Shown here one piece after another: positions 4,046-46,446 of a DNA stretch of 64,000 bases. The stretch is from NCBI GenBank assembly GCA_030154025.1, contig JASKKT010000001.1, positions 28,173 through 92,172 of the forward strand, given 5' to 3'. A program made the position numbers and the translations under genes. Numbering within the stretch: the first letter of the stretch is position 1; every line of letters begins with the position of its first letter. Source of the stretch: Methanolobus sp. (GTDB lineage: Archaea > Halobacteriota > Methanosarcinia > Methanosarcinales > Methanosarcinaceae). A model generated the notes under the pieces. The model was not told the origin of the DNA. It ran no database searches and saw only the letters and a program-made list of their open reading frames with translations.

Positions 4046-4259
4046 AACCTATCTCCTGTTTAGGTGTTTCACAAGGAATTTTACTAACTATTAAAACATT
4101 TCGAAATCAATCTGCAGATTAATTTTCTTCGACTGCTATTATTTCAGATGTGCTCCTGACTCAGGGAACAATAATATAAAAGTTAGCCTAATACTTTCAC
4201 ACAACTTACTTAAGAGTATAATACCTTCAAAGCCTCCTGATAAAGGCCGGAAGATAAGG

Positions 4260-5456: not shown

Positions 5457-5492
5457 TATTGAAGGATAAGCCGGATTGAGGAGATACGGAAT

Positions 5493-5807: not shown

Positions 5808-5857
5808 TAGCTTCACAGGAAAGAAGAAAGGATTGCAAGAAAAGATGAGCTGCAGCT

Positions 5858-6931
5858 TTAAGCTGCAACTCCGTTCCCTTCCTCGAAGTAGCGCCTGGCC
5901 AGCAGAACCGCGCTGCTTCCCAGGAGGATCACAAGGAAGATTGCAATTACCATTCCCTCTGTACTGAAGTCCTGCCACGAGTGGACCGAGGCCCACATGC
6001 CACTGCGGGTCACGAAGGTAGCGAACACCACAAGTATGAATGACGCTATCGCCAGCAGAGGTGCGAGAAAACCATATTCTCCCTGGGATGTGCGTGTCCT
6101 TGCATGCAGGAAAGCAGTTGCTGTTATCCAGGGAATGAGGGATGAGGTCTCCACGGGGTCCCATGACCAGTACCATGCTCCCCAGCCTAGCACTTCATAT
6201 GCCCAGAAGCCACCGAGCCCGATCCCCAGGGTGAGGAAGAGCCATGCTATGCGCATCCAGTCCCTTGCGATGTCTGTCCATCTCCCGTCCTTTGTCAGAA
6301 GGTTTGCAATGGCTGCAGCAAAGGGTATTGTGAAGGCCGCATAACCCAGGAACAGCATTGGCGGGTGTATGGCCATCCATGGATTGCGCAGCAGGGGGTT
6401 CATACCCTGGCCGTAGGGCACATTGTATAAGGTGGCAAAGGGATCCCAGTAAGTGAGCACCACGCCCGTACCTGTGAGGGTGTAGCTTGCGAAGGGATTC
6501 TTCATCACCAGTATCAGCAGGAATACGGATATTATCCCCAGGGATACCATTCTGGTGACGTTCATCAGTTTTGTGTCAGCAAGCTTTTTTGTGTGTCCGG
6601 TGTACTGCACCAGCAGCAGTATGGCAAGTATGGCCCATGCCCAGAGCAGAAGTGACCCTTCCTGTCCGGCCCAGAGTGCCGAGACCCTGTAATACCACGC
6701 AAGGTCAGTGCTGGAATGGCTGTACACGTAATAATATGATGCATTCACTCTAAGGAGGTGCTCCACCAGCACCAGTATGGAGAGCGTGCCTGAGAGCGTG
6801 CATGCTATTTCCATCTTCCTGGACAGGCTGATGTAGCTCCGTTGCCCTCTGATATGGTGGGCAAGCGAGAGGATTGTGGCTCCTGTCCCTGTGAGGAAGG
6901 CAACCCAGATCAGTATCATGCCAAAGTTCAT
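5858..6931 (-). CDS. CcmF-like cytochrome c biogenesis protein, N-terminal/WWD half
   Basis: 357 aa polytopic; ALWAGQEGSLLLW and WGAWYWSWDPVETSSLIPW (WWD heme-handling motif). Confidence 0.88.
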   Translation of the reverse strand: MNFGMILIWVAFLTGTGATILSLAHHIRGQRSYISLSRKMEIACTLSGTLSILVLVEHLLRVNASYYYVYSHSSTDLAWYYRVSALWAGQEGSLLLWAWAILAILLLVQYTGHTKKLADTKLMNVTRMVSLGIISVFLLILVMKNPFASYTLTGTGVVLTYWDPFATLYNVPYGQGMNPLLRNPWMAIHPPMLFLGYAAFTIPFAAAIANLLTKDGRWTDIARDWMRIAWLFLTLGIGLGGFWAYEVLGWGAWYWSWDPVETSSLIPWITATAFLHARTRTSQGEYGFLAPLLAIASFILVVFATFVTRSGMWASVHSWQDFSTEGMVIAIFLVILLGSSAVLLARRYFEEGNGVAA

Positions 6932-7896
6932 TGTGATCCTCCCTTTGCCCCATTCTTCCTGCTTTTTGTGGGCTTCTCCGGTGTCTTCCTACCGGTGCCG
7001 AAATCTGCTGCAATGAGCGCGATAATGCCTATCACCATCAGATAGAAGCCGCCCCAGAGGAAGTTAATGTAGGGCACGGTCCTCATATACAGGTCTATCT
7101 CCCCTTTCTGGAGGCTGATGGCCCTGGGTGCTATGAACAGCTCCTCCGTGAGGCCGCGGTGGATATAGGTGGTGGTATAACTCTGTCCCCACTTGAAATC
7201 AGTGACGTATCTCACCTGCCCTTCCTGGAAATAGACCCCGTTCCTGTAGATACCAAGGTTGACATCCGTGATATAGGATGATCCGGGGTAGTTCTGGTAG
7301 GGGTCCCCGGAATAGTAGGAGTTCATGCTGTTCACCCTGATGGCATAGTCCTGTCCGGGAAACTGCCCTATGTTACCGGAAATGATCGTACTGGACCCTT
7401 CCATTTTCATGTTGGCGCTCAGCACAATACCCAGCAGGATGAACAGTATCCCGAGATGTATCAGGTGGGCGCTGACGCCCCTGGCAGTCGCCCTGAAAGA
7501 ATCCCTCTTAAGCGCTTTCCCTATCTTGTAAATGGTGGCAAAGGACGCAAGCGCGATAATGGGAACTGAGACATCTACTGGCAGGTTTCCGAAGGGCGAT
7601 ATGAACGCGAAGAATGCTGCCAGTGCAATGTATCCTCCAACTATGGTCAAGGTGTTCCTTTGTCCGAGATAGCCTGCGAGCATGCAGATGCTGAGCAGTA
7701 CCACGAGGGCTGCGGTGGGCAGGGCCGTCCTGGCATTGAAATAGGAGGGTTCGAGACGTATCTCCACCCCGGTGCTTAGTTTTGCGATTAACGGCGTTAA
7801 CATGCCCATTAATATTATCGTTGCCAGAAGCAGGAAGACGACAACAGTAGCAAGCATGTTATTTTTCGGTGTCAGTAAAGGCCTTTTATTTTTCAT
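6928..7896 (-). CDS. CcmF-like cytochrome c biogenesis protein, C-terminal half
   Basis: 322 aa; ARGVSAHLIHLGILFILLGIVLS, extracytoplasmic domain and C-terminal TM; 4-bp overlap with next gene. Confidence 0.75.
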   Translation of the reverse strand: MKNKRPLLTPKNNMLATVVVFLLLATIILMGMLTPLIAKLSTGVEIRLEPSYFNARTALPTAALVVLLSICMLAGYLGQRNTLTIVGGYIALAAFFAFISPFGNLPVDVSVPIIALASFATIYKIGKALKRDSFRATARGVSAHLIHLGILFILLGIVLSANMKMEGSSTIISGNIGQFPGQDYAIRVNSMNSYYSGDPYQNYPGSSYITDVNLGIYRNGVYFQEGQVRYVTDFKWGQSYTTTYIHRGLTEELFIAPRAISLQKGEIDLYMRTVPYINFLWGGFYLMVIGIIALIAADFGTGRKTPEKPTKSRKNGAKGGSQ

Positions 7897-7974
7897 CAGT
7901 TGTCTGCTGTAAACCTACGATAAGTATGTAATATAGAGTTTTCTCTTGCATCCACGATGTTTTAAATAGATGTT

Positions 7975-8574
7975 ATGCAATCATGGCATAGGAAACTGAG
8001 AAAACGGATGAACACAATGATAGAGATACTGGTTACTGCCCTGTGGCTTATGCTTCCGGCATATATCCCGAATTCATCTGCTGCTGTCTTTGGCGGCGGA
8101 AGGCCCCTGGACGGCGGAAAGACTCTCAAGGACGGGCGCCGCATACTTGGTGACGGCAAGACCTACCGCGGCCTCATTGCAGGCACCCTGTGTGGCATGC
8201 TGCTCGGCCTGCTCCAGATGTACTACATGTCAAGGCAGGACACCATATTCGGAGTGACGCTGCCATCATTTGGTGAGCTTCCTGGTGCCCTTGTGGTAAT
8301 TTTCACGCTGGCCTTCGGGGCTCTTATAGGGGATCTTTCCATGAGCTTTGTCAAGCGCAGGCTGGGATTGAAAAGGGGAGCTCCTCTGCCGGTTGTCGAC
8401 CAGCTTGACTTCGTGCTTGGCGCATGGGTGCTGACATACCTGGTCTCTCCCGGGTGGTTCACGGCCAGTTTCACTTTTTACGTGGCACTTGCAGTGATCA
8501 TTGTCACTCCTCTGCTGCATGTATCCACAAATATCGTCGGCTATCTCATAGGAGTAAAGAAGGAGCCCTGGTGA
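7975..8574 (+). CDS. carS: CDP-archaeol synthase (DUF46)
   Basis: 199 aa; MLPAYIPNSSAAVFGGGRPLDGGKTLKDGRRILGDGKTYRGLIAG; shorter start at 8008 possible. Confidence 0.92.
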   Translation: MQSWHRKLRKRMNTMIEILVTALWLMLPAYIPNSSAAVFGGGRPLDGGKTLKDGRRILGDGKTYRGLIAGTLCGMLLGLLQMYYMSRQDTIFGVTLPSFGELPGALVVIFTLAFGALIGDLSMSFVKRRLGLKRGAPLPVVDQLDFVLGAWVLTYLVSPGWFTASFTFYVALAVIIVTPLLHVSTNIVGYLIGVKKEPW

Positions 8575-8670
8575 TTGCAGGGCTCGATTGTGTGCTATTA
8601 TATTTTTAAGCAGTCAGGATGACATTATTACAAGGTTCAGTTCCTAGTTTGTCCATAAGTCAGTATCAAA

Positions 8671-9228
8671 TTGGTGATCATCATGCCGGGTTCGGAAAAC
8701 AGCAAACAGTTACTTATCGATGCGCTCAAGGCCTGTGGCGCTGTCAGGTTCGGGGATTTCACGCTTGCCTCCGGGAAAAAAAGCACGTACTATATAGATA
8801 TCAAGAAAGCAAGCACTGATCCCGGGACCCTGAGAACCATTGCTCAGGAGGCCGCAAAGGTCATAAAAGGTATGCGGGCAGACACTGTGGGCGGAGTTGT
8901 GCTCGGAGGCGTCCCGCTGGCTACTGCAGTATCCCTTGAATCAGGACTCCCGCTCCTGCTGATCCGCAAGAAGGATAAAGGATATGGCACAGGCGGGCGC
9001 TTTGTAGGTGAGCTCAGGCAGGGCTCCCGGGTGCTGCTGCTGGAAGATGTGACCACCAGCGGCGGGTCAGTGAAGGACGCAATAGAGGCCATACGCGAGA
9101 GCGGAGGCGAGGTGGAGACTGTTATAACTGTCGTTGACAGGGAATCCGGAGCTACGGAAAGCCTGGCTTCCATGGGTGTGAGACTTGTGCCCCTCGTGAG
9201 GGCAAGCGATCTGGTGAGCACTGCGTAG
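8671..9228 (+). CDS. pyrE: Orotate phosphoribosyltransferase
   Basis: 185 aa; FTLASGKKSTYYIDIKKAS, VLLLEDVTTSGGSVKDAIEAI. Confidence 0.94.
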   Translation: MVIIMPGSENSKQLLIDALKACGAVRFGDFTLASGKKSTYYIDIKKASTDPGTLRTIAQEAAKVIKGMRADTVGGVVLGGVPLATAVSLESGLPLLLIRKKDKGYGTGGRFVGELRQGSRVLLLEDVTTSGGSVKDAIEAIRESGGEVETVITVVDRESGATESLASMGVRLVPLVRASDLVSTA

Positions 9229-9407
9229 GTCCGGCCGAAACCAAAAGGTAAATTATTTATTACAATAGCAAGCACTTAATGCTATTCCAGTTTCGCATGA
9301 GGTCATGGTGTAATTATAAATTAAGATTATGTCCTAACCAAATAGTCCTATTCAATGAATCCCTATAAGCAGCCTTTCAGAGGCAATTTAATAACGAGGT
9401 TTCAAGT

Positions 9408-10712
9408 ATGAATGTTTTAATAGTAGGTGGTGGCGGGAGGGAACATGCCATCACGGCAGCACTGGCAAGGAGCAGCAAGAACCCCTCACTCTTTGCAGTG
9501 ATGTCAAAAAAGAATCCCGGAATTGCAGGACTTTGCAGGGACTTCCTTCTCGCAAAGGAAACTGATGTTGAGAAGGTAGTGGAGTTTGCAGTCCGGAAAG
9601 GTATAGAGATAGCAGTTATAGGGCCCGAGGCTCCTCTCTCAGTGGGCCTTGCCGACGCGCTGGAGGACGCCGGCATCAGGGTGGCCGCCCCGAGAAAGGC
9701 AGTGGCACAGATAGAATTCAACAAGGGCTGGGCCCGCAATTTCATGAAGGACAACGGGATTGCAGGCTGCCCGGCATTCGATGTCTTCACAGAGAAGGGA
9801 CCAATGGATGCATTCATTGAGAAGCTTGGCGATGTCGCGATCAAGCCTGCTGGCCTTACGGGCGGAAAAGGCGTGAAGGTCATGGGAGACCAGCTGCCTG
9901 ACCTGAACTCTGCCAGGGAATATGCAGCAAGCCTGCTTGCATCCGGCAGCGTGGTCGTGGAGGAGAACCTCAAGGGTGAGGAGTTCACCTTGCAGGCCTT
10001 TGTGGACGGTGAGCACCTGGCTTTCATGCCCACGGTGCAGGATCACAAGCGTGCCTTTGAGGGTGACCTTGGGCCCAACACGGGCGGTATGGGCTCTTAC
10101 AATGATGCGGGAGAGATACTGCCTTTCCTGGTGAAGGAAGACGTTGAGCAGGCAAAGCAGATAATGCGGGAAACCGTGAAGGCCCTGCGCAAGGTTACAG
10201 GTGTGGGTTACAAGGGTGCGCTGTACGGGCAGTTCATGATCACAAAGGACGGCCCGAGAGTGATAGAGTTCAACGCCCGCTTTGGTGACCCCGAGGCTAT
10301 GAACGTGCTGTCCCTGCTGGAAACCGATTACGTGGACGTCCTGTCTGCTATCGTTTCGGGGACCCTTGACAAGCTTGACGTGAAGTTCAGCAGGAAGGCG
10401 ACCGTATGCAAGTACGCCGTCCCGGCAGGCTACCCGGACAAGCCTACAAGCGACAGGGTGGTCATCGTTGGCGATATAGGCGATGCCCTGCTCTTCTATT
10501 CAAGTGTCTATGAGGATGGCGGCAAGGTCTATACCACGGGCTCACGGGCGGTGGCGGTCGTTGGCATTGCGGATACCATTGCTGAGGCTGAGAAGGCCGC
10601 ACAGCATGCTCTGGACAATATCAAAGGTGACCTGCATTCCAGGCTTGACATAGGCACTGCAGGACTTATACAGAAGCGCATCGATCATATGAAGAAGATA
10701 CGCGGCAAGTGA
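9408..10712 (+). CDS. purD: Phosphoribosylamine-glycine ligase
   Basis: 434 aa; [18 protein letters not shown]-grasp [22 protein letters not shown]. Confidence 0.96.
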
Positions 10713-10727
10713 ATCGGGGTTGATAGC

Positions 10728-11636
10728 ATGAAACATCTCATTTCAATGGCTGACCTTACTCAGGAGGAGATCATAGCTCTCCTGGATGTGGCAACAGACC
10801 TGAAGGAAAAGCGGGCAAAGGGCAAGGTCACAGACCTGCTGAAGAACAAGAGCATAGGAATGATCTTCGAGAAGTCTTCTACACGTACCAGGGTCTCTTT
10901 CGAGGTTGCCATGAACGACCTCGGAGGCCATGCTCTCTACCTGAACCCGCGGGACATGCAGCTTGGCCGCGGGGAGACGATCGGGGATACTGCTAAGGTG
11001 CTCTCCAGATACCTCTACTGCATAGTTGCAAGGGTGTACAGCCACGACACCGTGACTGAGCTGGCGCTCCATTCGGGTGTGCCGGTGGTCAACGCACTTT
11101 CCGACAGGGAGCACCCCTGCCAGATCCTTGCGGACCTGATGACCATCCGGGAGTACAAGAACAGGCTCAAGGGCCTGAAGTTCGCATGGGTCGGCGACGG
11201 GAACAACGTGTGCAATTCCGCCATCCTCGGCTGCACACTGGTAGGAATGGAGGTTGCTGTTGCCTGCCCGCCCGGATATGAGCCGGACCCCGAGATCGTG
11301 AAGCAGGCCAAGCGCCTTGGCGGCAAGGTGACGGTCACCAACAGCCCCATGGAGGCTGCCAGGAACGCTGACATCCTCTACACGGACGTATGGGTGTCCA
11401 TGGGAGATGAGGACGAGCGCGACAAGCGCCTTACAGACCTTGCCCCCTACCAGATAAACATGCAGCTTGTCGGCCACGCAAAGCATGACGCCATCGTGAT
11501 GCACTGCCTGCCCGCCCACCGCGGCGAGGAGATATCCGCAGAGGTTATGGACGGCCCTCACTCGGTAGTCTTCGACCAGGCCGAGAACCGCCTGCACAGC
11601 CAGAAAGCCCTCCTGCTCAAACTGATGGCCTGCTGA
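10728..11636 (+). CDS. argF: Ornithine carbamoyltransferase
   Basis: 302 aa; [39 protein letters not shown]. Confidence 0.96.
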
Positions 11637-35628: not shown

Positions 35629-36609
35629 TCAGTCTGCCTTTCTCAGCACTATGGACCCGTCACGCATACGCACTTCTATATATTTTTCCTTTTCAGGTTC
35701 GAGCTCATACTTGTTGTAGAGTCCAGCATCTATCCTGCCCGCATCCATTATCCTGCGCATGAGCGCAACATCTTCCTTTCCCATCCTGACCTTTGCAACA
35801 GGGGAGTTTGTCTTTACCCTGCTTCTGGAATATATTGTCCCGCCGCTCATACCTGCTCCGATATAGCCTCTGGCGTTCTTGAAGGCAAGAACACCACTTT
35901 TCATGTAGGCGCCTGCGAACTCACCCACATTTCCAAGGACTGCCACTGTTCCGCCGTCAAGGTGTGATCCAGTGTTCATGCCCGCATCCCCGTTGACGAT
36001 TATTGTGCCCTCACGCATGAGCACGCCTGTACCATTATGTGCTCTGCCCTCGATCCGTATGGTTGCGGGTCTGTTGCAGCGTGCACCCACCGTGGCCCTG
36101 AGGATGCTGTCATTGAGCAAAAGCGTGTTGTTCTCCGGGTCGAACATGTTCAACAGCAGGACATCGTCTCCTGGTCCGCTGCATACAATATCTGTTATGG
36201 AACGGAACTTACGATATCCACTGACATCTGACCTTACCTCAATGATATTGCCGAAGGGTTCGCTTATGCTGCCTGCAACATATAGTGCCCCGGCGACCAT
36301 GCCCATGCCGGCTTCAGGCCCTACGTCTCCCTCCACGAAAACACGGCCTGCACTCTCCATGCCGCCGCTCCCGCCCATATGCTGCAGGTCAGCCCCCATG
36401 CTATAGGCGAAGTTTTTGCCCACATTCCCTTTGATACGGACATCGTCCCCGCTTTTCAGCGCCAGTACAAGGTCACGGTATGTAAGTTCAGTGTCTTTCT
36501 GGAAAGGGGTCACACTGTCCGGGTCCAGTAGCCGGTTGTGCCAGTGGAAATTGAAGGTGTAATCCAGCAGGTAGTCTGTGTTCTCTGTTATCTCTATTTC
36601 GACAGGCAT
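35629..36609 (-). CDS. GXGXG-domain protein (glutamate synthase alpha C-terminal / FwdC-like)
   Basis: MPVEIEITENTDYLLDYTFNFHWHNRLLDP...repeated GxGxxG beta-helix; start trimmed to 36609. Confidence 0.8.
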   Translation of the reverse strand: MPVEIEITENTDYLLDYTFNFHWHNRLLDPDSVTPFQKDTELTYRDLVLALKSGDDVRIKGNVGKNFAYSMGADLQHMGGSGGMESAGRVFVEGDVGPEAGMGMVAGALYVAGSISEPFGNIIEVRSDVSGYRKFRSITDIVCSGPGDDVLLLNMFDPENNTLLLNDSILRATVGARCNRPATIRIEGRAHNGTGVLMREGTIIVNGDAGMNTGSHLDGGTVAVLGNVGEFAGAYMKSGVLAFKNARGYIGAGMSGGTIYSRSRVKTNSPVAKVRMGKEDVALMRRIMDAGRIDAGLYNKYELEPEKEKYIEVRMRDGSIVLRKAD

Positions 36610-36614
36610 CTTAA

Positions 36615-36983
36615 TTATCCATGTATCAGCTTTGGAAGGCAGTGTGTGCATACCCATATGCTCTCCATCCTGTGCCTGACGGGCATAAGATAAGCGTTCT
36701 CTTCCCCGCAGTCGCAACTGAAACACCTGATGGACGTGTCGGTCTTTTTGGGCTGCGCATGGGCTTTTTCCGGGTTGAATTCCAGTGTCTGCCTCTGTTC
36801 AATGGATATTGCCCCGACCGGACACAGCCCTATGCAGAATCCCATGCCATCGCACAGCTCATCGGAAACCACTTTCGCCTTGCCGTTGACAAGCTCTATC
36901 GCCCCTTCTGCGCATGGGGATATGCATTTTCCGCATCCTGTACATTTCTCTTCATCGATCTTGACGATTGATCTTTTAACCAT
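36615..36983 (-). CDS. 4Fe-4S ferredoxin-domain protein
   Basis: MVKRSIVKIDEEKCTGCGKCISPCAEGAI...LCDGMGFCIGLCPVGAI; start trimmed to 36983. Confidence 0.92.
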   Translation of the reverse strand: MVKRSIVKIDEEKCTGCGKCISPCAEGAIELVNGKAKVVSDELCDGMGFCIGLCPVGAISIEQRQTLEFNPEKAHAQPKKTDTSIRCFSCDCGEENAYLMPVRHRMESIWVCTHCLPKLIHG

Positions 36984-37029
36984 AACGAACTCCCCGGGAA
37001 CATCAGTGATGTGTTCCCTCAACCAGTTT

Positions 37030-37047
37030 TATATTAGCATTGGTAAT
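37030..37047. repeat. att site copy (left)
   Basis: tatattagcattggtaat identical to 45302-45319. Confidence 0.88.
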
Positions 37048-37160
37048 CCTTAATAAAGGTTTGTATTATTTTTCCTAATCTTTCATCTTATCCAAGATTA
37101 GAACAATATTATTATACCTTTTAATATGTAATTGCATATTAATATTAGGGTGTTAGAATC

Positions 37161-37328
37161 ATGCCAAAGTTACAGCAAGTTAGAAACCAATATACTTTAA
37201 CAATCCCCCCGGAGATAGTTGAGCTTGAAGGGTGGACCAAAGGCCAGGAAATTAAGCTCCGCAGGATCTCCGCGAAGGGTGAAGAGTACATAGCTCTGAT
37301 TCCGACAAATGGAAATAGGAAGGAATAA
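37161..37328 (+). CDS. AbrB/SpoVT-like DNA-binding protein
   Basis: 55 aa; MPKLQQVRNQYTLTIPPEIVELEGWTKGQEIKL (not in ORF track because short). Confidence 0.75.
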   Translation: MPKLQQVRNQYTLTIPPEIVELEGWTKGQEIKLRRISAKGEEYIALIPTNGNRKE

Positions 37329-37349
37329 ACGTTAAGGCATAATTATTTA

Positions 37350-37553
37350 TTGATAAAAGAGTATTCTCAATCAATGGCTGTAAATACTCATCCACACTCA
37401 ATATCAAAAAAATGCCATTCAAAAGCTATTGCTCTTGACCCGGTGCCTTTGAGTCAAAAAACAATTAAGCGTATAGAGGAAGCAAAGAGAGACCTGAAAG
37501 AAGGTAATGTTTGCACCCTTGAAGAGCTTAAAGCCGAACTCGGAATAGAATGA
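37350..37553 (+). CDS. RelB-like antitoxin
   Basis: 67 aa; LSQKTIKRIEEAKRDLKEGNVCTLEELKAELGIE; overlaps the toxin ATG by 4 bp. Confidence 0.8.
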   Translation: MIKEYSQSMAVNTHPHSISKKCHSKAIALDPVPLSQKTIKRIEEAKRDLKEGNVCTLEELKAELGIE

Positions 37554-37840
37554 CCTATAAAGGAATTTTTACTACTGCTTTTAAAAAAGACTTAAAGGCA
37601 CTAAATAAGAAGCATCCTAAAGAAGTAAAACAAATTGTTCATTCTATTGAAAATATAATCTTAGTCAATCCTTTTACTGCCGATACTAAACAGTTGCAGT
37701 GTTTTGAGCATTATAGGTATCGAATAGGGAAATATAGAATTGTGTTTGATTTCACAGATGCAAACACGATTGTTTTTCTTGCGGTTGATCATAGATCGAC
37801 AATCTATGATAAGTTAAGACAAAGGTTTAATAAATGCTAA
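37550..37840 (+). CDS. RelE/ParE-family toxin
   Basis: 96 aa; FKKDLKALNKKHPKEVKQIVHSIENI...YRYRIGKYRIVFDF...VFLAVDHRSTIYDKL. Confidence 0.9.
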   Translation: MTYKGIFTTAFKKDLKALNKKHPKEVKQIVHSIENIILVNPFTADTKQLQCFEHYRYRIGKYRIVFDFTDANTIVFLAVDHRSTIYDKLRQRFNKC

Positions 37841-37862
37841 AATCCCCACTGCAGCGGGATTT
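37840..37862 (+). terminator. Hairpin after relE
   Basis: aaatccc ... gggattt followed by T-rich sequence. Confidence 0.5.
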
Positions 37863-38750
37863 ATTACCCTTTTGTTATAACTATTGTCTTCTCATCCTTC
37901 CGGGCAAAGCAAACCGGATATCCGGCATTTCCGAAATCATCAGGTAAGAGTATAGCCTTTTGTTTGCCTACCTGGATTATCTGCCTAACTGCCATCCTTT
38001 GCAGCACGGGTTTTATTATAAACCCTTTAAGTGACTATATAGATATTTTTAAAATATATAGTTCCTTAACTGCCTGTTTACTCGGCTATAAAATAAATAT
38101 CAGGATAAGACTACCGTTAGAAAACACACAATTTAAGTATCTTTTTAATACTTGCTTATTGGCTTGCTGTTGCAGCTTCCTGGATGACTATACATTCGCA
38201 TAATGCGTTTAGTCATGAAGGAGGGTCTACCGCCTCCCACACGATAGTACCTATAATACCCTTGAAAAAGTGTTTAGTTAGTCGGCCTTTAATATTGATG
38301 TTGTTATAGAGTAAGATGCAATACAGGCACATTAAGAGTAAATGCAACATTAAGTATCTTGTACTAAAAGGTAATTACATTATGGCAACTATCCTTAAAA
38401 GGATGGCATTACAACCGGAACAAGCGGAAGTAATTTTATTATACATATATAAGCCAAGGCAAAACAGCAGCCCTCAGGCAATTGATAAGCCCATCCAACC
38501 TATGACTACTGCCGGATAGTTCCGGGAATACTCCAATAGAATCCACATAGTACAGGGACGGCAACAACGGCAGCTATGTAATGAACCTATATAATAGTAA
38601 CAAAACAAGATAGCTGCAAGCACTCCCATAGTTGCTTTAACTAGGTGGCTTTGCTGGATATTTCTGGAAATCTCCTAAGAAATCCCCGGAGTTAAGGATA
38701 TCTCTTTTGCTCCAGGAATCAAAGATTGAGACTCTGTCAGGACAGGAACC

Positions 38751-40088
38751 TTATTTAAGCCTCGCTTTCAGTCTTTCGAGGTTTGCCCGTTTGTCTGCAT
38801 AGTACCGGGGACTAACACAATTAATACACCTGGGGTCCGGCTTACACACATTCAGCTCCCGGATAGATACACCCTTCGGATATCCTGTGTTGTCGTTGGC
38901 TCGCAGTTTGTCGCAGGTGGCTACTTTCATTCTAGCATAGTTTGACTTAAACACGTTGCTGGTGGTGGCTCCCCACTTCCTAGCGGTGCTTTCAAAGATT
39001 GATCTTGCCTGATCTTCCGGGATTCCCATTTGTCCCATGAACGTCGCTATAAATGCAAGTGCTCGCGTCCTGCCCTCCCCGCAGGAAGGTAAAGCCAGTA
39101 TGTTCTTTATGCAAGGTGGCCAGCTCTCGCAGGGGACCGGGGTGTTTGACATGTCCTTATCCTTGTCGAAGTGTCCCGGCTTCCCTTCTGCCCTGGAATA
39201 CCCGCCCTTGTTTGCTTCATGCTCTGCCTTTTCCAAATATGGCCTGAGGAATTGAAGGAGCTTATTATCATTATCAAAACTCCTGTACCACTCGTTCCCG
39301 GATTCTATAACCTCTCTTGATAATGGCAACCTTGCCCTATCAAAGTCTATGATGATCTTGTCCGGGTTTAATGGGATTACCGCGTAAGGGTGTTTCAGGT
39401 GAATACTGAATAAGGACTTAAAGACTCTCTTGGAATTGTTCAGGCTGTCCGGCTTCACCTTCCCTATGTGCTCAGGGTGCAGTTTAAAGAACTCTTCCCG
39501 GATATTGTCAATTACAAAGCCGTAAGCGTCCAGCAGGACAGTAAGGTAATGTTCCCATTCATTTGAAACTGTGTACCGCCTGAAATAGTCCTCTAATACG
39601 CTGTGGTGCAATAGCACATAGATTCCACCACCTGAAAAAAGCACATGAACGCTGTTAGGTGCATACTGCCTTAGTTTGTCGGTGTAGAATTGGCCCATAT
39701 CTTCTACTGCCTTTTTGACTTCCGGGTCGTGTATATTGCAGCCGTGCCCCTTGTCAATGTCAACGCCTAAAGTATAGCCTTGTGTGTACTGCCTGCTTAT
39801 CAATGGGCTCTCTTCCCCGTCCGTTACTTTGTTGTAGTCTATGTCATAGATTCGCCTGTCAAATAGGTTAAGGGTCCAATAGAGTGTTCTATGTGCCTTG
39901 ATTATCGCGGTGTAGTCCTCTACCTGTCCGAGATTATACGCCTTCTTCTTCTCGGATTCCTGTTTATACCAGCCGTGTCCGTCACCATTGCCCCACCTGG
40001 AATAAGTCCCTTCGCGGGAAATGGAAAGGATTGTATCCCTGATCTCTGGCCGGTTGTAATGCTCATAGGTCCATGAAGTAACGGTCAT
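38751..40088 (-). CDS. Archaeo-eukaryotic primase (AEP)-like protein with C-terminal Cys cluster (PriS-PriL-like fusion)
   Basis: 445 aa; GYTLGVDIDKG (DxD), HVLFSGGGIYVLLHH, RVFKSLFSIHLKHPYAVIPL; Cys at PPCIKN, TCDKLR, CKPDPRCINC. Confidence 0.8.
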   Translation of the reverse strand: MTVTSWTYEHYNRPEIRDTILSISREGTYSRWGNGDGHGWYKQESEKKKAYNLGQVEDYTAIIKAHRTLYWTLNLFDRRIYDIDYNKVTDGEESPLISRQYTQGYTLGVDIDKGHGCNIHDPEVKKAVEDMGQFYTDKLRQYAPNSVHVLFSGGGIYVLLHHSVLEDYFRRYTVSNEWEHYLTVLLDAYGFVIDNIREEFFKLHPEHIGKVKPDSLNNSKRVFKSLFSIHLKHPYAVIPLNPDKIIIDFDRARLPLSREVIESGNEWYRSFDNDNKLLQFLRPYLEKAEHEANKGGYSRAEGKPGHFDKDKDMSNTPVPCESWPPCIKNILALPSCGEGRTRALAFIATFMGQMGIPEDQARSIFESTARKWGATTSNVFKSNYARMKVATCDKLRANDNTGYPKGVSIRELNVCKPDPRCINCVSPRYYADKRANLERLKARLK

Positions 40089-41614
40089 GCAACCACCGCC
40101 GGAAGGCTGAAATTGTATCCGGTGTCCTTCACAAGATAAAGCTCGTCAATTGCCCGGGTGACTCCCACATAGAACACTCTGGCCTCTGAATTGCCGCGCC
40201 TTGCCGCCTTCTGCAGGTTGGTAGTAATGCCAGTGTGCAGAAATACTCGGCTTGCTTCAAGTCCCTTGCTTGCATGTATTGTGAGTATGGATGTATTGAT
40301 ATCTTCCGGGGATATTCTCCGGTTGAAACGTGCCAGTGCGTTGTTTATTTTGGCTGTCTTTAATTCCCCTGCTCGGCTCATATATGAAACTGGGTTTTTT
40401 GAGAGCAGGATATCATAGAGTTTATCTGATACCATGCCTTCCCCGCCTGGGAATTGTGGTACATTCAGGCTTTTAATTTTGTCTTGTGTTGCTGTCCGTG
40501 TTTTTCCACCGTTAAATAGCTCGTTGGGGTAGTGTTCGGATAGTGTCAGGATTTCACTGGGTTTAAGCGCGTTTCCAGCTCTTGCCGATATTATAGCATT
40601 GGTTGCTTCTATGTCATGCAGTGACCATCCATTTATCCCGGTCCACAATATCCCGCTTTCCGCTAGAAGGTGAGTTATAGCAGGTGCTTGGTAGTTCGAT
40701 CTTACTAAATGGAAAACTGGCTTTCCCGGCCCGCCTTCCCACACGTCGCGCATATTCATATATTCCCTGTGTGTTACTCGCCTGATTATTCCGGGATGTG
40801 TGCCGGTTTCAATTACAGGGGAACTTATACCGCACGTTTTTGTTATTGCCTTTGCATACTGCCATATTGCACTAGATAGCCGGTGTGACTTAGGAAGGGT
40901 GATCTTCTCACCGTCAAATGAATTAAAGTATTTCGGATCTGCGCCCCAGAAGTCATATATTGCCTGCATTGGATCACCTGCTATAATTACGTGCTTGATC
41001 TCTCCGGCCCACATTTTAAATATGTCATGCTGAAGAGTGGTTAAGTCTTGGAACTCGTCCACCATCAAAACATCTACATCAGGCACTAGAGAATCATTCT
41101 TTACCTGCTGGAGCATGTCGGTAAAATCAAGCTTGCTATTCTCCTGTTTCCAGTCTTTATATGCCTTGATTGCTTCGATTGCTCTTTGTGGTGACATTTT
41201 TACATCCCTCCAGCCTGGATATTCCACTATCTTGCTTAACGGTGTGCCGGTATTCGCCAGCCAGGAAATGCACTCTATAAGGGAACTACCGGGATTGTCT
41301 GTAAATTCGCCATTACTAAATGCGATCTTATAGCCGGTTGCCTTGTTGAAGTCCTCTATATCCTTACTCTCTATCAGTTCACCGTATCCCTTCCCACCTA
41401 GCAGGCCATAGCATACGCCGTGAATTGTATTTACGGTGTCTTTTCTGATTTCCTGGCCCGTTACCTCGGATAGTCTGTGCCTGATATTGTCGGCTGTGTC
41501 CCTGCTGAAGGTTGTCATCAGTATTCGATTATCTTTATTTAGTCTGATATACTCCCCGCGCAAATAATGGGTCTTTCCGCTACCAGGTGCCCCTAATATC
41601 GCACGTCTCGTCAC
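40085..41614 (-). CDS. UvrD/Rep-like superfamily 1 helicase
   Basis: 509 aa; Walker A GAPGSGKTHYLRGEY, DVLMVDEFQDLTTLQ, ILTIHASKGLEASRVFL, RVFYVGVTRAIDELYLV. Confidence 0.92.
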   Translation of the reverse strand: MTRRAILGAPGSGKTHYLRGEYIRLNKDNRILMTTFSRDTADNIRHRLSEVTGQEIRKDTVNTIHGVCYGLLGGKGYGELIESKDIEDFNKATGYKIAFSNGEFTDNPGSSLIECISWLANTGTPLSKIVEYPGWRDVKMSPQRAIEAIKAYKDWKQENSKLDFTDMLQQVKNDSLVPDVDVLMVDEFQDLTTLQHDIFKMWAGEIKHVIIAGDPMQAIYDFWGADPKYFNSFDGEKITLPKSHRLSSAIWQYAKAITKTCGISSPVIETGTHPGIIRRVTHREYMNMRDVWEGGPGKPVFHLVRSNYQAPAITHLLAESGILWTGINGWSLHDIEATNAIISARAGNALKPSEILTLSEHYPNELFNGGKTRTATQDKIKSLNVPQFPGGEGMVSDKLYDILLSKNPVSYMSRAGELKTAKINNALARFNRRISPEDINTSILTIHASKGLEASRVFLHTGITTNLQKAARRGNSEARVFYVGVTRAIDELYLVKDTGYNFSLPAVVA

Positions 41615-41629
41615 GCTTCACACCCCACA

Positions 41630-41760
41630 AGGGCACAGGGGGAACAGGGTATAAGGGGAGGGGTGTGCCCTCAAAAACGCTAGCACTATATACACAGGGC
41701 ACAAGGGCACATGGGTAACGCGAGTATTTAGTGTAAAAGGTATCGTATATAGTGTGCCCT
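41630..41760. repeat. Iteron-like cluster: five copies of AGGGCACA (3 direct, 2 inverted)
   Basis: AGGGCACA at 41630-41637, 41696-41703, 41704-41711; TGTGCCCT at 41664-41671, 41753-41760. Confidence 0.75.
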
Positions 41761-41773
41761 GAATCCCAGACAT

Positions 41774-42454
41774 TCAGACCACCGCCTTAAATACCGGCAT
41801 AGCTGCCTCAATTGCTGATTCCTGGAACCACCAGCAACGAACATTTGTCCCTGTTACTTTAACGGTGTGGGTGTTACCTGCCTTGTAACCTCTCGCCACC
41901 ATTGCCGCGCTCACGTCCTCAAGTGTGGCTTTGATACGAATCTCGTTAAGCATAGAGGTTACTGTCGCGGAAGGGACCACATAGAAAAGCTCATCGTGTG
42001 GTTTATGCTCTACAAAATACAGGCAGTTGTCCCGGTTAAGCAATACCTCTCTGTCCTTTGTGAGCTGGAAAGTATTAACCATTTCTTCAAAAAGCAAATC
42101 TGCCGCCATGAGTGCCGCTGTTTCTTCATACTCTCCCGGCTCCGCAATCCCGGCTATGTATTCCACGAATACCGGCCAGCTCTCTTTAGGGATATACGGC
42201 AGTTTCCCGAAGGTATCAAAGTACAAAGTCCGGAATCTCCCCGGTCCCTGCGTCAGTTGTGACGTGTTTATGGAAATATCCGCGTTCGCTATGAATATAT
42301 GATAAATTCCGGTTTCACCGTTCTTGATTGTTGGGGATTTAACAACTTTGTCTATCTGGTTACATATCGTTTCAAGGGTTATGTTTGCCCGCTGTTCCGA
42401 TGAGAAGGGGTTAGTATTCACTGTTCCGCCTCCTAAGTATCGACGTTCTTCCAT
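41774..42454 (-). CDS. Element protein of unknown function with possible C-terminal winged-helix-like region
   Basis: 226 aa ORF, 22-bp overlap with neighbour; ...MLNEIRIKATLEDVSAAMVARGYKAGNTHTVKVTGTNVRCWWF. Confidence 0.65.
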   Translation of the reverse strand: MEERRYLGGGTVNTNPFSSEQRANITLETICNQIDKVVKSPTIKNGETGIYHIFIANADISINTSQLTQGPGRFRTLYFDTFGKLPYIPKESWPVFVEYIAGIAEPGEYEETAALMAADLLFEEMVNTFQLTKDREVLLNRDNCLYFVEHKPHDELFYVVPSATVTSMLNEIRIKATLEDVSAAMVARGYKAGNTHTVKVTGTNVRCWWFQESAIEAAMPVFKAVV

Positions 42455-43086
42455 ATCTGCGCGCAGTAGTCACAAATGTCTTCTGTACATACCTCTCCGC
42501 ACCGGAAACAATAGTTCACATCATCATGCTGTTTCGGTGTGCTGGGTGTTGTCACTGTAGCCTTCGAGTAATGCAATTGTTTGGCTTCCTGCAATCTCAG
42601 CATGTAGCACTCCCGGAAGTAATCCGCAAGCCTCCGACCATCGTTAAAGGTACAAATAGCGCCGTTTTTCCTTAACAGTGTGGCTATTCCTGGACTAAAG
42701 GCGGTTGCAGTATCAACCCATATCTTATATGCATTCCTCGCCGATCCATCAGCAAAAGTGATCTCTACCCGGCTGCAAATACTCCCTTCTGTCCCTTCAC
42801 TGATTGACGATAAGACACAAGGAACGGTGCTAATGCGCTTCCATCCAAACCGGGTTTGATTTGCATACCTTTTATGTACTCCTTGAGGATCTGCTTTGTA
42901 TCCTTCAGGCAGCATCACACCCACGAACTTGCAACCTCTGGCACGGTTTGGAAAGATCACATTTTCAAAGGTCACATTTATGTACTTCTGGTGCATATTT
43001 ATGTATGTACCATCAATTACCTCTTCTCCAAACATTCCGGGGTGTGTTTCATCAAGCCATTTTTCCCCCACTCTACACACCCCCAC
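42433..43086 (-). CDS. Element protein, DUF927-N-like region plus C-terminal zinc ribbon (tentative)
   Basis: 217 aa; C-terminal CFRCGEVCTEDICDYC; middle region resembles the N-terminal part of DUF927 proteins by eye. Confidence 0.55.
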   Translation of the reverse strand: MGVCRVGEKWLDETHPGMFGEEVIDGTYINMHQKYINVTFENVIFPNRARGCKFVGVMLPEGYKADPQGVHKRYANQTRFGWKRISTVPCVLSSISEGTEGSICSRVEITFADGSARNAYKIWVDTATAFSPGIATLLRKNGAICTFNDGRRLADYFRECYMLRLQEAKQLHYSKATVTTPSTPKQHDDVNYCFRCGEVCTEDICDYCAQIWKNVDT

Positions 43087-43306
43087 TCTTTACTATTGCC
43101 TCACATGCATTCTCTGAAAACTGCACCTCTGTAAATAGGGTTTTTAGGTTTCTGCCGTTTCTGGTTGGGTTGGGGTCAGTGCCCATCCGGTAAGGGTGCA
43201 AAGTACAGTCATAAATGTGACAATTTGCAACCTCCTTTACGCTCTGACAACAACAAGCAAGGCAGTTTAAGCGAATTGCTTTAAGGATCGTTGCCTTTGT
43301 GGTCAT
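43073..43306 (-). CDS. Small Cys-rich (zinc-finger-like) element protein
   Basis: 77 aa; CLACCCQSVKEVANCHIYDCTLHPYRMGTDP, a pattern seen in phage/plasmid small proteins. Confidence 0.7.
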   Translation of the reverse strand: MTTKATILKAIRLNCLACCCQSVKEVANCHIYDCTLHPYRMGTDPNPTRNGRNLKTLFTEVQFSENACEAIVKSGGV

Positions 43307-43443
43307 GCTGTCACCCCTACAGCTTCATATATTGCATCTGCAAGTGCTTGCTCTAAAATGTCAGTAGACTTTGCCCAGCTGTCGATTATGTCTTTATGCT
43401 GTGCATAGTTCCGTTTTGCCGATTCAATGAATTTTGCGTTCAT
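43303..43443 (-). CDS. Small hypothetical protein, first gene of element operon
   Basis: 46 aa MNAKFIESAKRNYAQHKDIIDSWAKSTDILEQALADAIYEAVGVTA; ATGA overlap with the next gene. Confidence 0.5.
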   Translation of the reverse strand: MNAKFIESAKRNYAQHKDIIDSWAKSTDILEQALADAIYEAVGVTA

Positions 43444-43500
43444 TTATTGCCTGCCTTGCTTGGCAGGGTCTCTAAAAAAGCCCAGTGTATGAAAAGTATA

Positions 43501-43517
43501 TATAATACAATGTCATA
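43501..43517. promoter_or_regulatory. Candidate RHH operator half-site near the element operon promoter
   Basis: tataatacaatgtcata shares TATA[AG]TAC[AT][AT]TGTCATA with 43776-43792. Confidence 0.45.
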
Positions 43518-43605
43518 CTTTATAACGGAGGCGAAACTTCCGCTATTAGGGTTCTTTTACTGTGTTCTGTCTTGTTACTAGCAAGGCGGAACACATGGAC
43601 CCAGC

Positions 43606-43752
43606 CTAAGCCACTTTGATATCTTCCATTTGGTTTAGTCCCTTTTCTAGCACTTCGTTTAACATTGTGCTTCTTGGTATCCGATTCCTTACCATATCGA
43701 GTCTATCCAGAAGATCGGCATCGATTCTTGCGCATATTTGTACTTTGTTCAT
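43606..43752 (-). CDS. Ribbon-helix-helix regulator
   Basis: MNKVQICARIDADLLDRLDMVRNRIPRSTMLNEVLEKGLNQMEDIKVA; start trimmed from 43791 to the Met preceding the RHH beta-strand. Confidence 0.8.
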   Translation of the reverse strand: MNKVQICARIDADLLDRLDMVRNRIPRSTMLNEVLEKGLNQMEDIKVA

Positions 43753-43768
43753 ATTTTCTAGCCTCTCA

Positions 43769-43791
43769 ATGACAATATAGTACTTTGTCAT
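43769..43791. promoter_or_regulatory. Inverted-repeat operator candidate
   Basis: ATGACAA-tatagtact-TTGTCAT, perfect 7-bp arms, 9-bp spacer, just upstream of the RHH gene. Confidence 0.6.
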
Positions 43792-43992
43792 AACTATATA
43801 GGAATATATAGTATAAAAAGATTAGGGCTGTAAGCGTATGGTGTGTTTAAACCGTGTTTTATGGCCTTATACTGCCCCGATTGTCAGCAAAAATACTAGC
43901 TATAAATTAATAATGGAGTGAAATATATATAATCCGCAACCGGGACAATATATAAAAACGAAAAATAAATAAATAAAATAAGCAATTTTACT

Positions 43993-45255
43993 TTACTCTT
44001 GCTTATTCAAATTCATATTTTTTAAAACCTTTTCCATCACACGCTCGGTTATCTCATCAAGTGTCATATCTGCTGTCATTTCTTGCTTGAGTTTTTCGCT
44101 TACCCCCAGTGCCTCTTTTGTCAATGGTAAGCCACAGAAACCGCAGAACATGACATCAGGTGGTATCATCTTGTGACATCTCGGGCATTCATCAGCCTTA
44201 AGCCGGGTATCTCTCTTCTCGATCTCAATGCCATTCTTTGCCAGGACTGCCGCGTCCATGTCACGGCCTGATAAGTGAACATAAACCGCAGCCATCTTGG
44301 AGTCTTGCGCCCATCCTAAATACTGCTTCATCTGTTGCTCTGTGAAGTCCTTTGCCAGCTCTGTTGCTTGTGCATGCCTGAATGAATGAGGATTAACCTT
44401 TTTCTTAATCCCAGCCCTATCTGCTGCCCTGACAATCACTTTCCTAAACGCTGTTGCGCTTATAGGGTTGTGTGGTGGGAATAGCTGACACCATAAGAAG
44501 GCTTCGCGGTTGTTCCGGTCGGGGTGTGTTATAAGCCAGTTGTTAAGATACATGCCTGAAAAGATAACTAAAATCTTCCGGGCCCCTGTCTTGCCTTCCG
44601 GGAAGTGAATATAAGTGCCTTTCTCATGTGGTACAATGTGCTTAATCTTCAATGCAAGCAGTTCTCCAAGCCTCGCGCCTGACTCATACAAAAGGGATAT
44701 TAACGCTTTGTCCCTGGGATTTGCAGCATTGTCTATGAGACCCTTAATTTCTTCCTTCGTTAAGAGATCCTCGGGAATTTTTGTCTTATTCTTAGTGTTG
44801 GGTAGTGTGATACCTTCGACAAGGTCCTTGCGCCCTGCAAACTTCAAGAGACATTTAAAAGTAACAGTATGCGCCTTTTTGCTAGTTGCTGACAGGTCAA
44901 GCCCATTAAGACCAATCAGGATATCTTCAACATCTGCCTGCATAAGCTCGCTTACTGGCTTGCTTACAATGTCGTTTATAATACGCAATGACCCTATATT
45001 ATTGCGGATCGTGAAGGGTGAAGCACCAGCAATCTTATAAGAATTTATGAACCGCCTGTACAGGTCCCGGTTTGAGTTATCGCAGTTATCAAGAACAGCA
45101 CTTAACATGCTCTCGCATTGTGCGCGTGCTCTGTCTGTCTCACTGGCATACTTCTTTTTCTTTTCTACATATCTAACAGGCTTAACACCTGTCACCTTCT
45201 CAACCATGCCAGATGCAAGGTTGAAATCATCCATAGGATTATTTTTCTTTGACAT
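43993..45255 (-). CDS. Tyrosine recombinase/integrase with C-terminal zinc ribbon
   Basis: 420 aa; LLYESGARLGELLALK, HSFRHAQATELAKDFTEQQMKQYLGWAQDSKMAAVYVHLSGRD; CPRCHKMIPPDVMFCGFCG. Confidence 0.93.
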   Translation of the reverse strand: MSKKNNPMDDFNLASGMVEKVTGVKPVRYVEKKKKYASETDRARAQCESMLSAVLDNCDNSNRDLYRRFINSYKIAGASPFTIRNNIGSLRIINDIVSKPVSELMQADVEDILIGLNGLDLSATSKKAHTVTFKCLLKFAGRKDLVEGITLPNTKNKTKIPEDLLTKEEIKGLIDNAANPRDKALISLLYESGARLGELLALKIKHIVPHEKGTYIHFPEGKTGARKILVIFSGMYLNNWLITHPDRNNREAFLWCQLFPPHNPISATAFRKVIVRAADRAGIKKKVNPHSFRHAQATELAKDFTEQQMKQYLGWAQDSKMAAVYVHLSGRDMDAAVLAKNGIEIEKRDTRLKADECPRCHKMIPPDVMFCGFCGLPLTKEALGVSEKLKQEMTADMTLDEITERVMEKVLKNMNLNKQE

Positions 45256-45295
45256 ATTACACCTGCTAACATTTACATGGAGATAATATTAACCT

Positions 45296-45628
45296 CTATA
45301 GTATATTAGCATTGGTAATAGTCCTTTTTATCTCTTCGATATGTGGGCACCTGGGATAATTATCCATCTGCATGCAGGAGCTGAGGTGGATGACGTCAAC
45401 TCCATGCTTGAGCAAGGACTTTACAAGCCTGTGCACCCTGCGCCCTGAGCATCCGCCGCAGGTAAAGAACGCTACCATCTCGGTATTGCGGTCATAGTCC
45501 TTGAATCGGACCGTACGCTTGTTGAAAGCCTTAAAGCATCCCACTCCCGGGCATGTCTCTGATACGATATCGCATCGTATCACCGCGATTCGTGTTATGT
45601 GCCTGCCATCCTCTGCAATGTCAGCCAT
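45296..45628 (-). CDS. CGGC-domain protein
   Basis: 110 aa; MVAFFTCGGCSGRRVHRL; C-terminus ITNANIL* is encoded by att DNA. Confidence 0.85.
   Translation of the reverse strand: MADIAEDGRHITRIAVIRCDIVSETCPGVGCFKAFNKRTVRFKDYDRNTEMVAFFTCGGCSGRRVHRLVKSLLKHGVDVIHLSSCMQMDNYPRCPHIEEIKRTITNANIL
45302..45319. repeat. att site copy (right), within the 3' end of the CGGC gene
   Basis: tatattagcattggtaat identical to 37030-37047. Confidence 0.88.
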
Positions 45629-45706
45629 AAGATCAGCTCCGCTCTAACCTAAACTTGTCCCGAAGTAAAGGGGGACTGAAGATGGTCCCCTTAAAGATGC
45701 TCCTGA

Positions 45707-46366
45707 TTAAAGGCCGATCTCTTTCTTGAAGTTATCAAGGCCCATCTCATCGATGACCCTGCCCAGCCGGTGTTTTGAACCGTTGGTCTTGCAGAAGCTG
45801 ATGATCTTATCAACTAGCTGGAGCACTTCATCCTCAGTGAGCTCATCTGCGATGACATCAGCAAGTCTTGGCCTGATGGCTGCATTCCCGCCGACCATGA
45901 CCGTATATCCTTTCGGGGTACCCATGACGCCGATGTCTTTTATGGCCGGTTCCGAGCATGAGTTGGCACATCCGGAGACTGCCATCTTGAACTTGGATGG
46001 AAGTGGCATTCCATGATATTTCTCATCAAGTTTAAGTCCGAGGCCCACAGCATCCTGCTGTCCGCGCTTACAGAATGTCGTGCCCGGGCATATTTTTATG
46101 CTCCTGACGCAAAGGCCGATCGCAGCACCCGGCTTGATCCCTAGGTCCTCCCAGGCCTTATCGAGGTCCTCTTCCTTCAATCCTACAATAGCAACTCTCT
46201 GTGACGAAGTAACTTTAAGTGTTGCTGCATTATACCTCTCAGCAACATCTGCGATCTTGCGAAGCTGCTCTGCTGAAACGATCCCACCTGGAAGGTGTGG
46301 TGCAATTGCGTATGTTTCCTTATCCCTCTGCAGGATTGCTCCTTTTTCAAGTAGGTCTTTTGACAT
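45707..46366 (-). CDS. Small siroheme sulfite/nitrite reductase-like protein (Dsr-LP type)
   Basis: CPGTTFCKRGQQDAVGLG and SGCANSCSEPAIKDIGVMG. Confidence 0.88.
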   Translation of the reverse strand: MSKDLLEKGAILQRDKETYAIAPHLPGGIVSAEQLRKIADVAERYNAATLKVTSSQRVAIVGLKEEDLDKAWEDLGIKPGAAIGLCVRSIKICPGTTFCKRGQQDAVGLGLKLDEKYHGMPLPSKFKMAVSGCANSCSEPAIKDIGVMGTPKGYTVMVGGNAAIRPRLADVIADELTEDEVLQLVDKIISFCKTNGSKHRLGRVIDEMGLDNFKKEIGL

Positions 46367-46446
46367 TTTAAAATCACTCCTCATCCAAAACTGTTTATGG
46401 ACTATTGTATATTATGACGGGGACATATATATGAGGTAGTTTCTAA

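What the first reader, a model, noticed from the sequence alone, without database searches (positions are those of the whole stretch)
37030..45319. Compact ~8.3-kb integrated replicon-like element with exact 18-bp att repeats
A perfect direct repeat (tatattagcattggtaat) brackets a tyrosine recombinase, RHH regulator, small Cys-rich protein, two unassigned proteins, an SF1 helicase, a primase-like protein and an AbrB+RelBE cargo. I saw no capsid, portal, terminase or conjugation genes, so it looks like an integrative plasmid or minimal virus-derived element. The gene set is a self-contained primase/helicase replication module. This is the best candidate in the window for an undescribed system.
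Basis: partly seen in the sequence, partly recalled or inferred. Interest (0 to 1): 0.85.

Follow-up and report, generated by a model that had tools for sequence, protein, structure and literature searches.

The report
Small integrated plasmid of a methanogen
An 8.3-kb plasmid-like element has inserted itself into the end of a gene in a methane-producing archaeon; it carries a compact fused DNA primase, a helicase, a DNA-binding protein and a repeat-rich stretch that looks like its replication origin, and relatives keep the layout of that stretch while changing its repeat sequence.

Summary
An exact 18-bp repeat (37030-37047, 45302-45319) brackets an 8,272-bp element in a Methanosarcinaceae genome. 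Some twenty relatives carry the uninterrupted site, a CGGC-domain gene followed directly by a ferredoxin gene. The insertion cuts the conserved C-terminus (KLVEGTHH) off the CGGC protein and separates it from the ferredoxin gene.

The element is best read as a site-specific integrative plasmid; no virion or conjugation gene was found. Its core is a cassette shared with elements of other Methanosarcinaceae genera: a predicted winged-helix protein (41774-42454), an SF1 helicase related to those of Thermococcales pTN2/pEXT9a plasmids, and a 445-aa primase predicted to fuse a PriS-type catalytic domain to a PriL C-terminal domain. The primase family is shared with tailed viruses of Methanosarcinales.

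It holds six short repeats. At the same place relatives carry repeats of different sequence in nearly the same layout. This is probably the origin, with the winged-helix protein as initiator; an operator is the main rival.

It resembles pTN2-type plasmids but fails their membership test: a new variant of a known kind.

The parts
37030..37047 (.). attL, 18-bp direct repeat, ferredoxin-gene side
   Evidence: exact repeat; matches the uninterrupted site of relatives
45302..45319 (.). attR, 18-bp direct repeat inside the 3' end of the CGGC-domain gene
   Evidence: exact repeat; L005 carries the same 18 bp in an uninterrupted CGGC gene
37048..45319 (.). the integrated element, one 8,272-bp unit (spacing of the two att copies)
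37161..37328 (+). AbrB-like 55-aa ORF at the left end
   Evidence: 85% identical to an ORF at the left end of an element of the same genus, G005/L250; not scanned against Pfam, NCBIfam gave no match, so the AbrB label is weak
37350..37553 (+). RelB-like antitoxin ORF
   Evidence: position before the toxin gene; no family match, so inferred
37550..37840 (+). RelE/ParE toxin
   Evidence: PF05016 1.2e-9; TIGR02385 over its cut-off
38751..40088 (-). fused primase: AEP/PriS-type domain (about 1-265) plus PriL C-terminal domain (about 310-435)
   Evidence: AlphaFold model pLDDT 84, Foldseek to prim-pol and PriS/Pri1 structures; PF04104 in 15 of 22 family members; HMM match to the host PriL CTD, 6e-7; invariant D110/D112, D214 and C392
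40085..41614 (-). SF1 (UvrD-like) helicase
   Evidence: PF00580 1.8e-29, phrog_1967 7e-64; plasmid matches include pAMT7, pMETVU01, pEXT9a, pIRI33, pTN2; tree
41615..41773 (-). repeat (iteron) region, candidate replication origin; exact 7-mer TGTGCCC/GGGCACA at 41753-41759, 41705-41711, 41697-41703, 41664-41670 and 41631-41637, plus one imperfect copy at about 41640-41647
   Evidence: six copies of an 8-mer with at most 1 mismatch, 0 of 200 shuffles; positions; similar layout with other repeat sequences in relatives
41774..42454 (-). 226-aa protein, predicted winged-helix DNA-binding protein, candidate initiator
   Evidence: AlphaFold model pLDDT 82; weak Foldseek matches to TcpK, SCCmec Cch and SaPIBov1 Rep; found in 11 of the 12 genomes that have the helicase
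42433..43086 (-). 217-aa protein of unknown function with a C-terminal zinc-ribbon-like CxxC pattern
   Evidence: one relative in the class, in the G005 element
43073..43306 (-). 77-aa Cys-rich protein
   Evidence: partial match (44%, E 3e-5) to small phage proteins
43303..43443 (-). 46-aa ORF
   Evidence: ORF listing only
43606..43791 (-). RHH/Arc-like regulator
   Evidence: phrog_3180, E 0.004
43993..45255 (-). tyrosine recombinase (integrase) with a C-terminal zinc ribbon, 47 bp from attR
   Evidence: PF00589 7e-22, PF13240; family in 69 of 238 class genomes
45296..45628 (-). host CGGC-domain gene, truncated by the insertion (ITNANIKLVEGTHH becomes ITNANIL)
   Evidence: PF08821 1e-32; alignment with relatives
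36615..37022 (-). host ferredoxin-type gene that directly follows the CGGC gene in relatives

Best explanation
The element is an integrative plasmid that inserts by tyrosine recombinase between an 18-bp attP and an attB in the 3' part of a CGGC-domain gene, truncating that gene and splitting a CGGC-ferredoxin gene cluster (shown by comparison with uninterrupted sites). When excised as a circle it most likely replicates with its own module, in these steps (inferred): (1) the 226-aa winged-helix protein binds the repeats in the 159-bp gap just downstream of its gene; (2) the adjacent AT-rich stretch opens and the SF1 helicase unwinds; (3) the PriS-PriL fusion lays primers, with its PriL domain helping initiation; (4) a host polymerase completes the copies. 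The RelBE-type pair helps keep the element in the cell and the RHH and AbrB-like proteins regulate it.
For: Integration: exact repeats, uninterrupted site in about 20 relatives with the CGGC and ferredoxin genes adjacent, exact 18 bp in L005, absence from all other species of the genus, and a related element in G005 with the same arrangement of att, AbrB-like ORF and integrase. Replication: orf226-helicase-primase cassette in other Methanosarcinaceae genera; 11 of 12 genomes with the helicase also have orf226; AEP fold and PriL domain with conserved catalytic Asp residues; winged-helix prediction. Origin: repeats at the same place in relatives, 0 of 200 shuffles in five other elements and 1-8 of 200 in three more, and the same pattern in two distant genomes, L235 and L236, whose next gene is not this primase.
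Against: No circular form, excision or replication was seen; the assembly holds one copy. Foldseek matches of the 226-aa protein are weak (best E 0.006) and cover only part of it. Two relatives do not fit well: L086 has no significant repeat excess and L090 has no gap. Within the window 2 of about 800 tiles of the same size also reach six copies, so the case rests on conservation of layout. TATA-like sequences lie next to several repeats, as an operator would have.
Confidence: 0.7

Rival explanations
1. The repeat region is an operator and promoter (with a T-rich terminator), not an origin: the 226-aa winged-helix protein represses the helicase-primase operon, and the true origin lies elsewhere, for example in the 0.9-kb gene-poor stretch at 37841-38750.
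For: TATA-like sequences sit beside repeats in several elements and a T5-T7 run recurs before the third repeat group; the region lies inside the operon.
Against: Up to eight copies in spaced groups with both orientations is more than a simple operator needs, and the arrangement (initiator gene, repeats, helicase, primase) parallels SaPI and SCCmec origins (PMC7581432). Both functions could be combined.
Confidence: 0.35
2. The element is a reduced provirus or a satellite that borrows virions, rather than a plasmid.
For: The primase family is shared with tailed viruses of Methanosarcinales, the helicase with phages, and the 77-aa protein has phage-like relatives.
Against: No capsid, portal, terminase or morphogenesis gene was recognised; relatives differ in cargo, not in recognisable structural genes. 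A virion protein of an unknown family among the small ORFs is not excluded.
Confidence: 0.2
3. The element is a dead remnant that can no longer excise or replicate.
For: A 0.9-kb gene-poor stretch at 37841-38750; one copy in the assembly.
Against: All core genes are open, both att copies are identical, and the repeat region is intact.
Confidence: 0.1
4. Misassembly or a chimeric contig.
For: The genome is a draft of 86 contigs.
Against: Both flanks match the gene order of relatives across the insertion and join exactly at the repeat; a similar element sits in the 2-contig, near-complete genome of G005.
Confidence: 0.02

Closest known systems
pTN2-like and pEXT9a-like plasmids of Thermococcales (and pMETVU01)
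   Same: Small plasmids whose replication genes are an SF1 helicase and, in pTN2, an AEP-PriL fusion; RelBE-type toxins also occur; the helicases are related (PMC3543421, PMC3973330).
   Different: Only the helicase matches by sequence. There the large replication gene lies upstream of the helicase gene, here the primase follows it. A winged helix is predicted as part of PolpTN2 there (PMC5862659) and is a separate protein here.
PolpTN2 / PrimPol-PV1 primases
   Same: AEP domain with PriL-like domain in one chain; motif-II His replaced (Gln there, Tyr157 here, by reading of the alignment).
   Different: Weak match of the AEP part only (hhalign 41%, E 3e-4) and none for the PriL part, which instead matches the host PriL (92%, 6e-7). 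No recognisable PriCT or winged helix in this 445-aa chain.
Primases of Methanosarcinales tailed viruses vir515 and vir525
   Same: 31-36% identical over residues 2 to about 421-433 of the window primase, covering both domains.
   Different: There fused to a large C-terminal part (D5_N/DUF5906 in vir515); here alone, with an SF1 helicase beside it.
SaPI Rep and SCCmec Cch/Cch2 replication systems
   Same: Initiator winged helix, short repeats next to its gene, helicase and primase (PMC7581432); Foldseek places the 226-aa protein near their winged helices.
   Different: Bacterial; the winged helix is part of the initiator helicase there.
Cryptic integrated elements of archaea, e.g. in Thaumarchaeota
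   Same: Integration into the 3' part of protein-coding genes (14 of 68 elements; PMC6563490).
   Different: Other hosts and gene sets.

Membership tests
pTN2/pEXT9a-like plasmid family | SF1 helicase homologous to the plasmid helicases | tested here: met
   E 3e-26 to 5e-14 against seven such plasmids; grouping in the tree is only weakly supported (90/63)
pTN2/pEXT9a-like plasmid family | large replication gene immediately upstream of the helicase gene | tested here: not met
   primase gene follows the helicase gene; the gene upstream is the 226-aa protein
pTN2/pEXT9a-like plasmid family | further shared plasmid genes | tested here: not met
   no other element protein matches pTN2, pAMT7, pMETVU01, pIRI33 or pEXT9a at E 1e-3
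PolpTN2 primase family | sequence homology over AEP and PriL-like domains | tested here: inconclusive
   AEP part weak (41%, 3e-4), PriL part no match
archaeo-eukaryotic primase superfamily | prim-pol fold with catalytic acidic residues | tested here: met
   Foldseek E 3e-4 to 1e-3 against prim-pol/PriS structures; invariant D110, D112, D214
PriL C-terminal Fe-S domain | homology to PriL with conserved cysteines | tested here: met
   PF04104 in 15 of 22 members, best 7.5e-8; host PriL 6e-7; C392 invariant, C415 and C421 in at least 90%; a bound cluster was not testable
site-specific integrative element (tyrosine recombinase) | direct repeats at both ends, and an uninterrupted target in relatives | tested here: met
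site-specific integrative element (tyrosine recombinase) | excised circular form | not testable with these tools
   no reads available
tailed virus / provirus | capsid, portal, terminase genes | tested here: not met
   no such match in Pfam or PHROGs for the main ORFs
iteron-type replication origin | clustered short repeats beside a candidate initiator gene | tested here: met
iteron-type replication origin | initiator binds the repeats and replication depends on them | not testable with these tools
   needs a gel shift and a plasmid test

The most novel reading that the evidence does not exclude
A portable initiator-origin-helicase-primase cassette of methanogen elements in which a free-standing winged-helix initiator and its repeats change together from element to element while the layout of the origin stays fixed, and in which the primase catalytic domain can be exchanged around a conserved PriL domain and helicase.
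Probability: 0.5. Interest if true: 0.65.

Novelty: new variant of a known kind. Interest (0 to 1): 0.5.

Why it matters
How small archaeal plasmids with AEP/PriL primases choose their origin is open: the authors of the PolpTN2 study state that the biochemistry of the primase does not explain how replication starts at a specific site (PMC3973330). Here a candidate initiator, a candidate origin, a helicase and a minimal PriS-PriL primase sit together in about 3.7 kb, with relatives that supply natural variants of the repeats. That makes origin recognition directly testable and gives a possible basis for new vectors for Methanosarcinaceae. The shared primase family also links small plasmids with tailed viruses of the same archaea.

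Tried and rejected
Terminal overlap of the relatives' contigs as a sign of circular plasmids: none. Homology of the 226-aa protein to the small proteins next to the virus primases: none. Phylogenetic union of the helicase with the Thermococcales plasmids: the fork is open, so not claimed. Rolling-circle replication (HUH or Rep-Arvir, PMC13107129): no such family match seen, but not searched with a dedicated profile. Inovirus-like element: no morphogenesis ATPase among the matches. The first single-protein scan of viral contigs found nothing; the alignment query did. The sequence search of solved structures with the single primase gave only chance matches. A viral-contig scan with the 226-aa protein alignment was not possible because it has no conserved stretch.
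Full report
Observation. The window holds exactly two copies of TATATTAGCATTGGTAAT, at 37030-37047 and 45302-45319; none of 100 shuffles gave two matches even with 3 mismatches, and about 0.02 exact pairs of that length are expected in 64 kb. The genome has one more site, with 2 mismatches, on another contig. The spacing is 8,272 bp.

Host. The window lies in a 2.26-Mb draft genome of 86 contigs. A relative in the same family, G166, has a contig identical in length and gene positions to one titled Methanosarcina sp. UBA5, so the family is Methanosarcinaceae; the genus is not named by the tools.

Uninterrupted site. In about twenty relatives the CGGC-domain gene is followed within a few tens of bases by the ferredoxin gene, and the GXGXG-motif gene follows. 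Joining the window's flanks at the repeat gives a sequence that aligns without a gap at the junction to relatives; L005 has the same 18 bp, L004 and L007 differ by one base, the closest species (L003) by three. In all seventeen relatives aligned the CGGC gene ends in codons for GTHH. In the window the reading frame runs from the repeat into element DNA and stops after one leucine, so eight residues (KLVEGTHH), the last of them conserved throughout, are lost, and the insertion does not restore the gene. This is direct reading.

Not core genes. The primase occurs in no other genome of the genus (26 others searched), nor does the helicase at 1e-40 or the 226-aa protein.

Family of elements. In other Methanosarcinaceae genera the order orf226-helicase-primase recurs in L063/L085, L064/L086, L087, L088, L089 and L090. 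Eleven of the twelve class genomes with the helicase also have orf226. In G130, G132, G138 and G150 the third gene is different. For the two read in full (G130 and G138) it is an AEP-type protein, with a premature stop in the G138 copy, that keeps the PriL domain at its end (hhalign 99%, 1e-19) with a much weaker match for the rest; G132 and G150 were matched by profile only. So the catalytic part appears to be exchanged around a kept helicase, orf226 and PriL domain. G005, of the same genus, holds a third combination in its main chromosomal contig: 62% identical integrase at one end, 85% identical AbrB-like ORF at the other, a 53% identical 217-aa protein, an 11-bp repeat at the corresponding places, but a Prim-Pol/DUF3987 replication protein and GmrSD-like and AAA cargo. 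The integrase family is in 69 of 238 class genomes.

Primase. The single protein matches PF04104 only weakly (0.0067), but 15 of 22 family members match it, best 7.5e-8, and the family profile matches the host PriL C-terminal domain at 6e-7. The model (pLDDT 84) finds prim-pol and PriS/Pri1 structures at E 3e-4 to 1e-3; TM-scores are modest (query-normalised about 0.3), in part because those chains lack the PriL domain. D110, D112, D214, R221, K224, S228, H230 and C392 are invariant. In the SGxGxH motif of PriS the His position is Tyr157 here (at least 90% conserved); this is a reading of the alignment, not a separate test. The host has its own PriS and PriL. The same family, fused to a large C-terminal part, is in tailed viruses vir515 and vir525 and in Methanothrix-type genomes, and in a viral contig read in detail (L098) it stands alone, with no match to the SF1 helicase in the stretch held.

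Helicase. Best matches are phage and pTN2/pEXT9a-type plasmid helicases at similar scores. In the tree the Methanosarcinaceae element helicases form one clade (100/99) and the Thermococcales plasmids another (96/95); the fork that would join them is open. Several other families of the phylum have a more distant relative, mostly about 620 aa, in many genomes; I did not establish whether that is a chromosomal gene.

Repeat region. Between orf226 and the helicase gene, 159 bp (41615-41773) carry six copies of an 8-mer within one mismatch; 0 of 200 shuffles reach that. The same gap in L085, L087, L089, L078 and L184 gives 7-8 copies of other 8-mers with 0 of 200 shuffles; L079 gives 1, L088 2 and L185 8 of 200; L086 shows no excess and L090 has no gap. 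The layout is similar: one copy in reverse near the start, an AT-rich stretch, two or three forward copies spaced about 8-9 bp, a segment ending in a T run, one reverse copy, then one or two forward copies before the helicase gene; L087 is longer and deviates in the second half. L235 and L236, from a more distant family, show a similar pattern ahead of their helicase. As a control, 2 of about 800 tiles of this window reach six copies and 7 reach five, so one region alone would not be proof. The inner forward and reverse copies could also pair as a stem-loop, as at the pRN1 origin (PMC4234260); conservation of repeats cannot separate that from protein binding.

Candidate initiator. The 226-aa protein is modelled at pLDDT 82; its best Foldseek matches are the relaxosome accessory protein of pCW3 bound to oriT (TcpK, name from my own knowledge), the SCCmec Cch helicase and SaPIBov1 Rep (E 0.006 to 0.08). 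[quoted passage not shown]

What is shown and what is inferred. Shown: the insertion, its target, its absence from relatives, the cassette, the domain assignments at the stated strengths, the repeats and their layout. Inferred: excision, replication as a circle, the role of the repeats and of the 226-aa protein, maintenance by the RelBE-type pair. I put integration at above 0.95, a pTN2-like mode of replication at about 0.8, and the origin reading at about 0.6.

Membership. By the features of the pTN2/pEXT9a family the helicase is met, gene order and other shared genes are not, and the primase relation is inconclusive. It works like such a plasmid but should not be filed as one.

Noticed in passing
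L250 (G005:C1:248000-266000), about 1299-11456: A 10.1-kb element in the same genus with the same kind of ends and integrase but a Prim-Pol/DUF3987 replicase and GmrSD-like plus AAA-ATPase cargo, inserted near the start of an aminotransferase gene.
   Followed up: partly
L063, about 303-9133: A related element splits a DJ-1/PfpI gene and carries a 96-aa protein (667-957, minus strand) that looks by eye like a two-transmembrane-helix protein; no Pfam match. Whether it is a virion protein is open.
   Followed up: no
L064/L086: A 1112-aa S-layer-like protein (by eye) lies between the integrase and the orf226 gene, possibly cargo that alters the cell surface; the contig ends before the element's limits.
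   Followed up: no
L098: A stretch of a 61-kb viral contig with a stand-alone primase of this family beside genes that look like a sliding clamp and glycosyltransferases; no SF1 helicase match in the stretch held.
   Followed up: no
L087: A contig binned as a Peptococcaceae bacterium carries the orf226-helicase-primase cassette; probably a binning error of a methanogen element.
   Followed up: no
window 35629-37022 and 45296-46384: The insertion interrupts what looks like a co-directional cluster (sulfite-reductase-like, CGGC, ferredoxin, GXGXG protein); expression of the downstream genes may depend on the element.
   Followed up: no
window 37841-38750: A 0.9-kb stretch without a convincing gene, between the toxin gene and the primase gene.
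   Followed up: no
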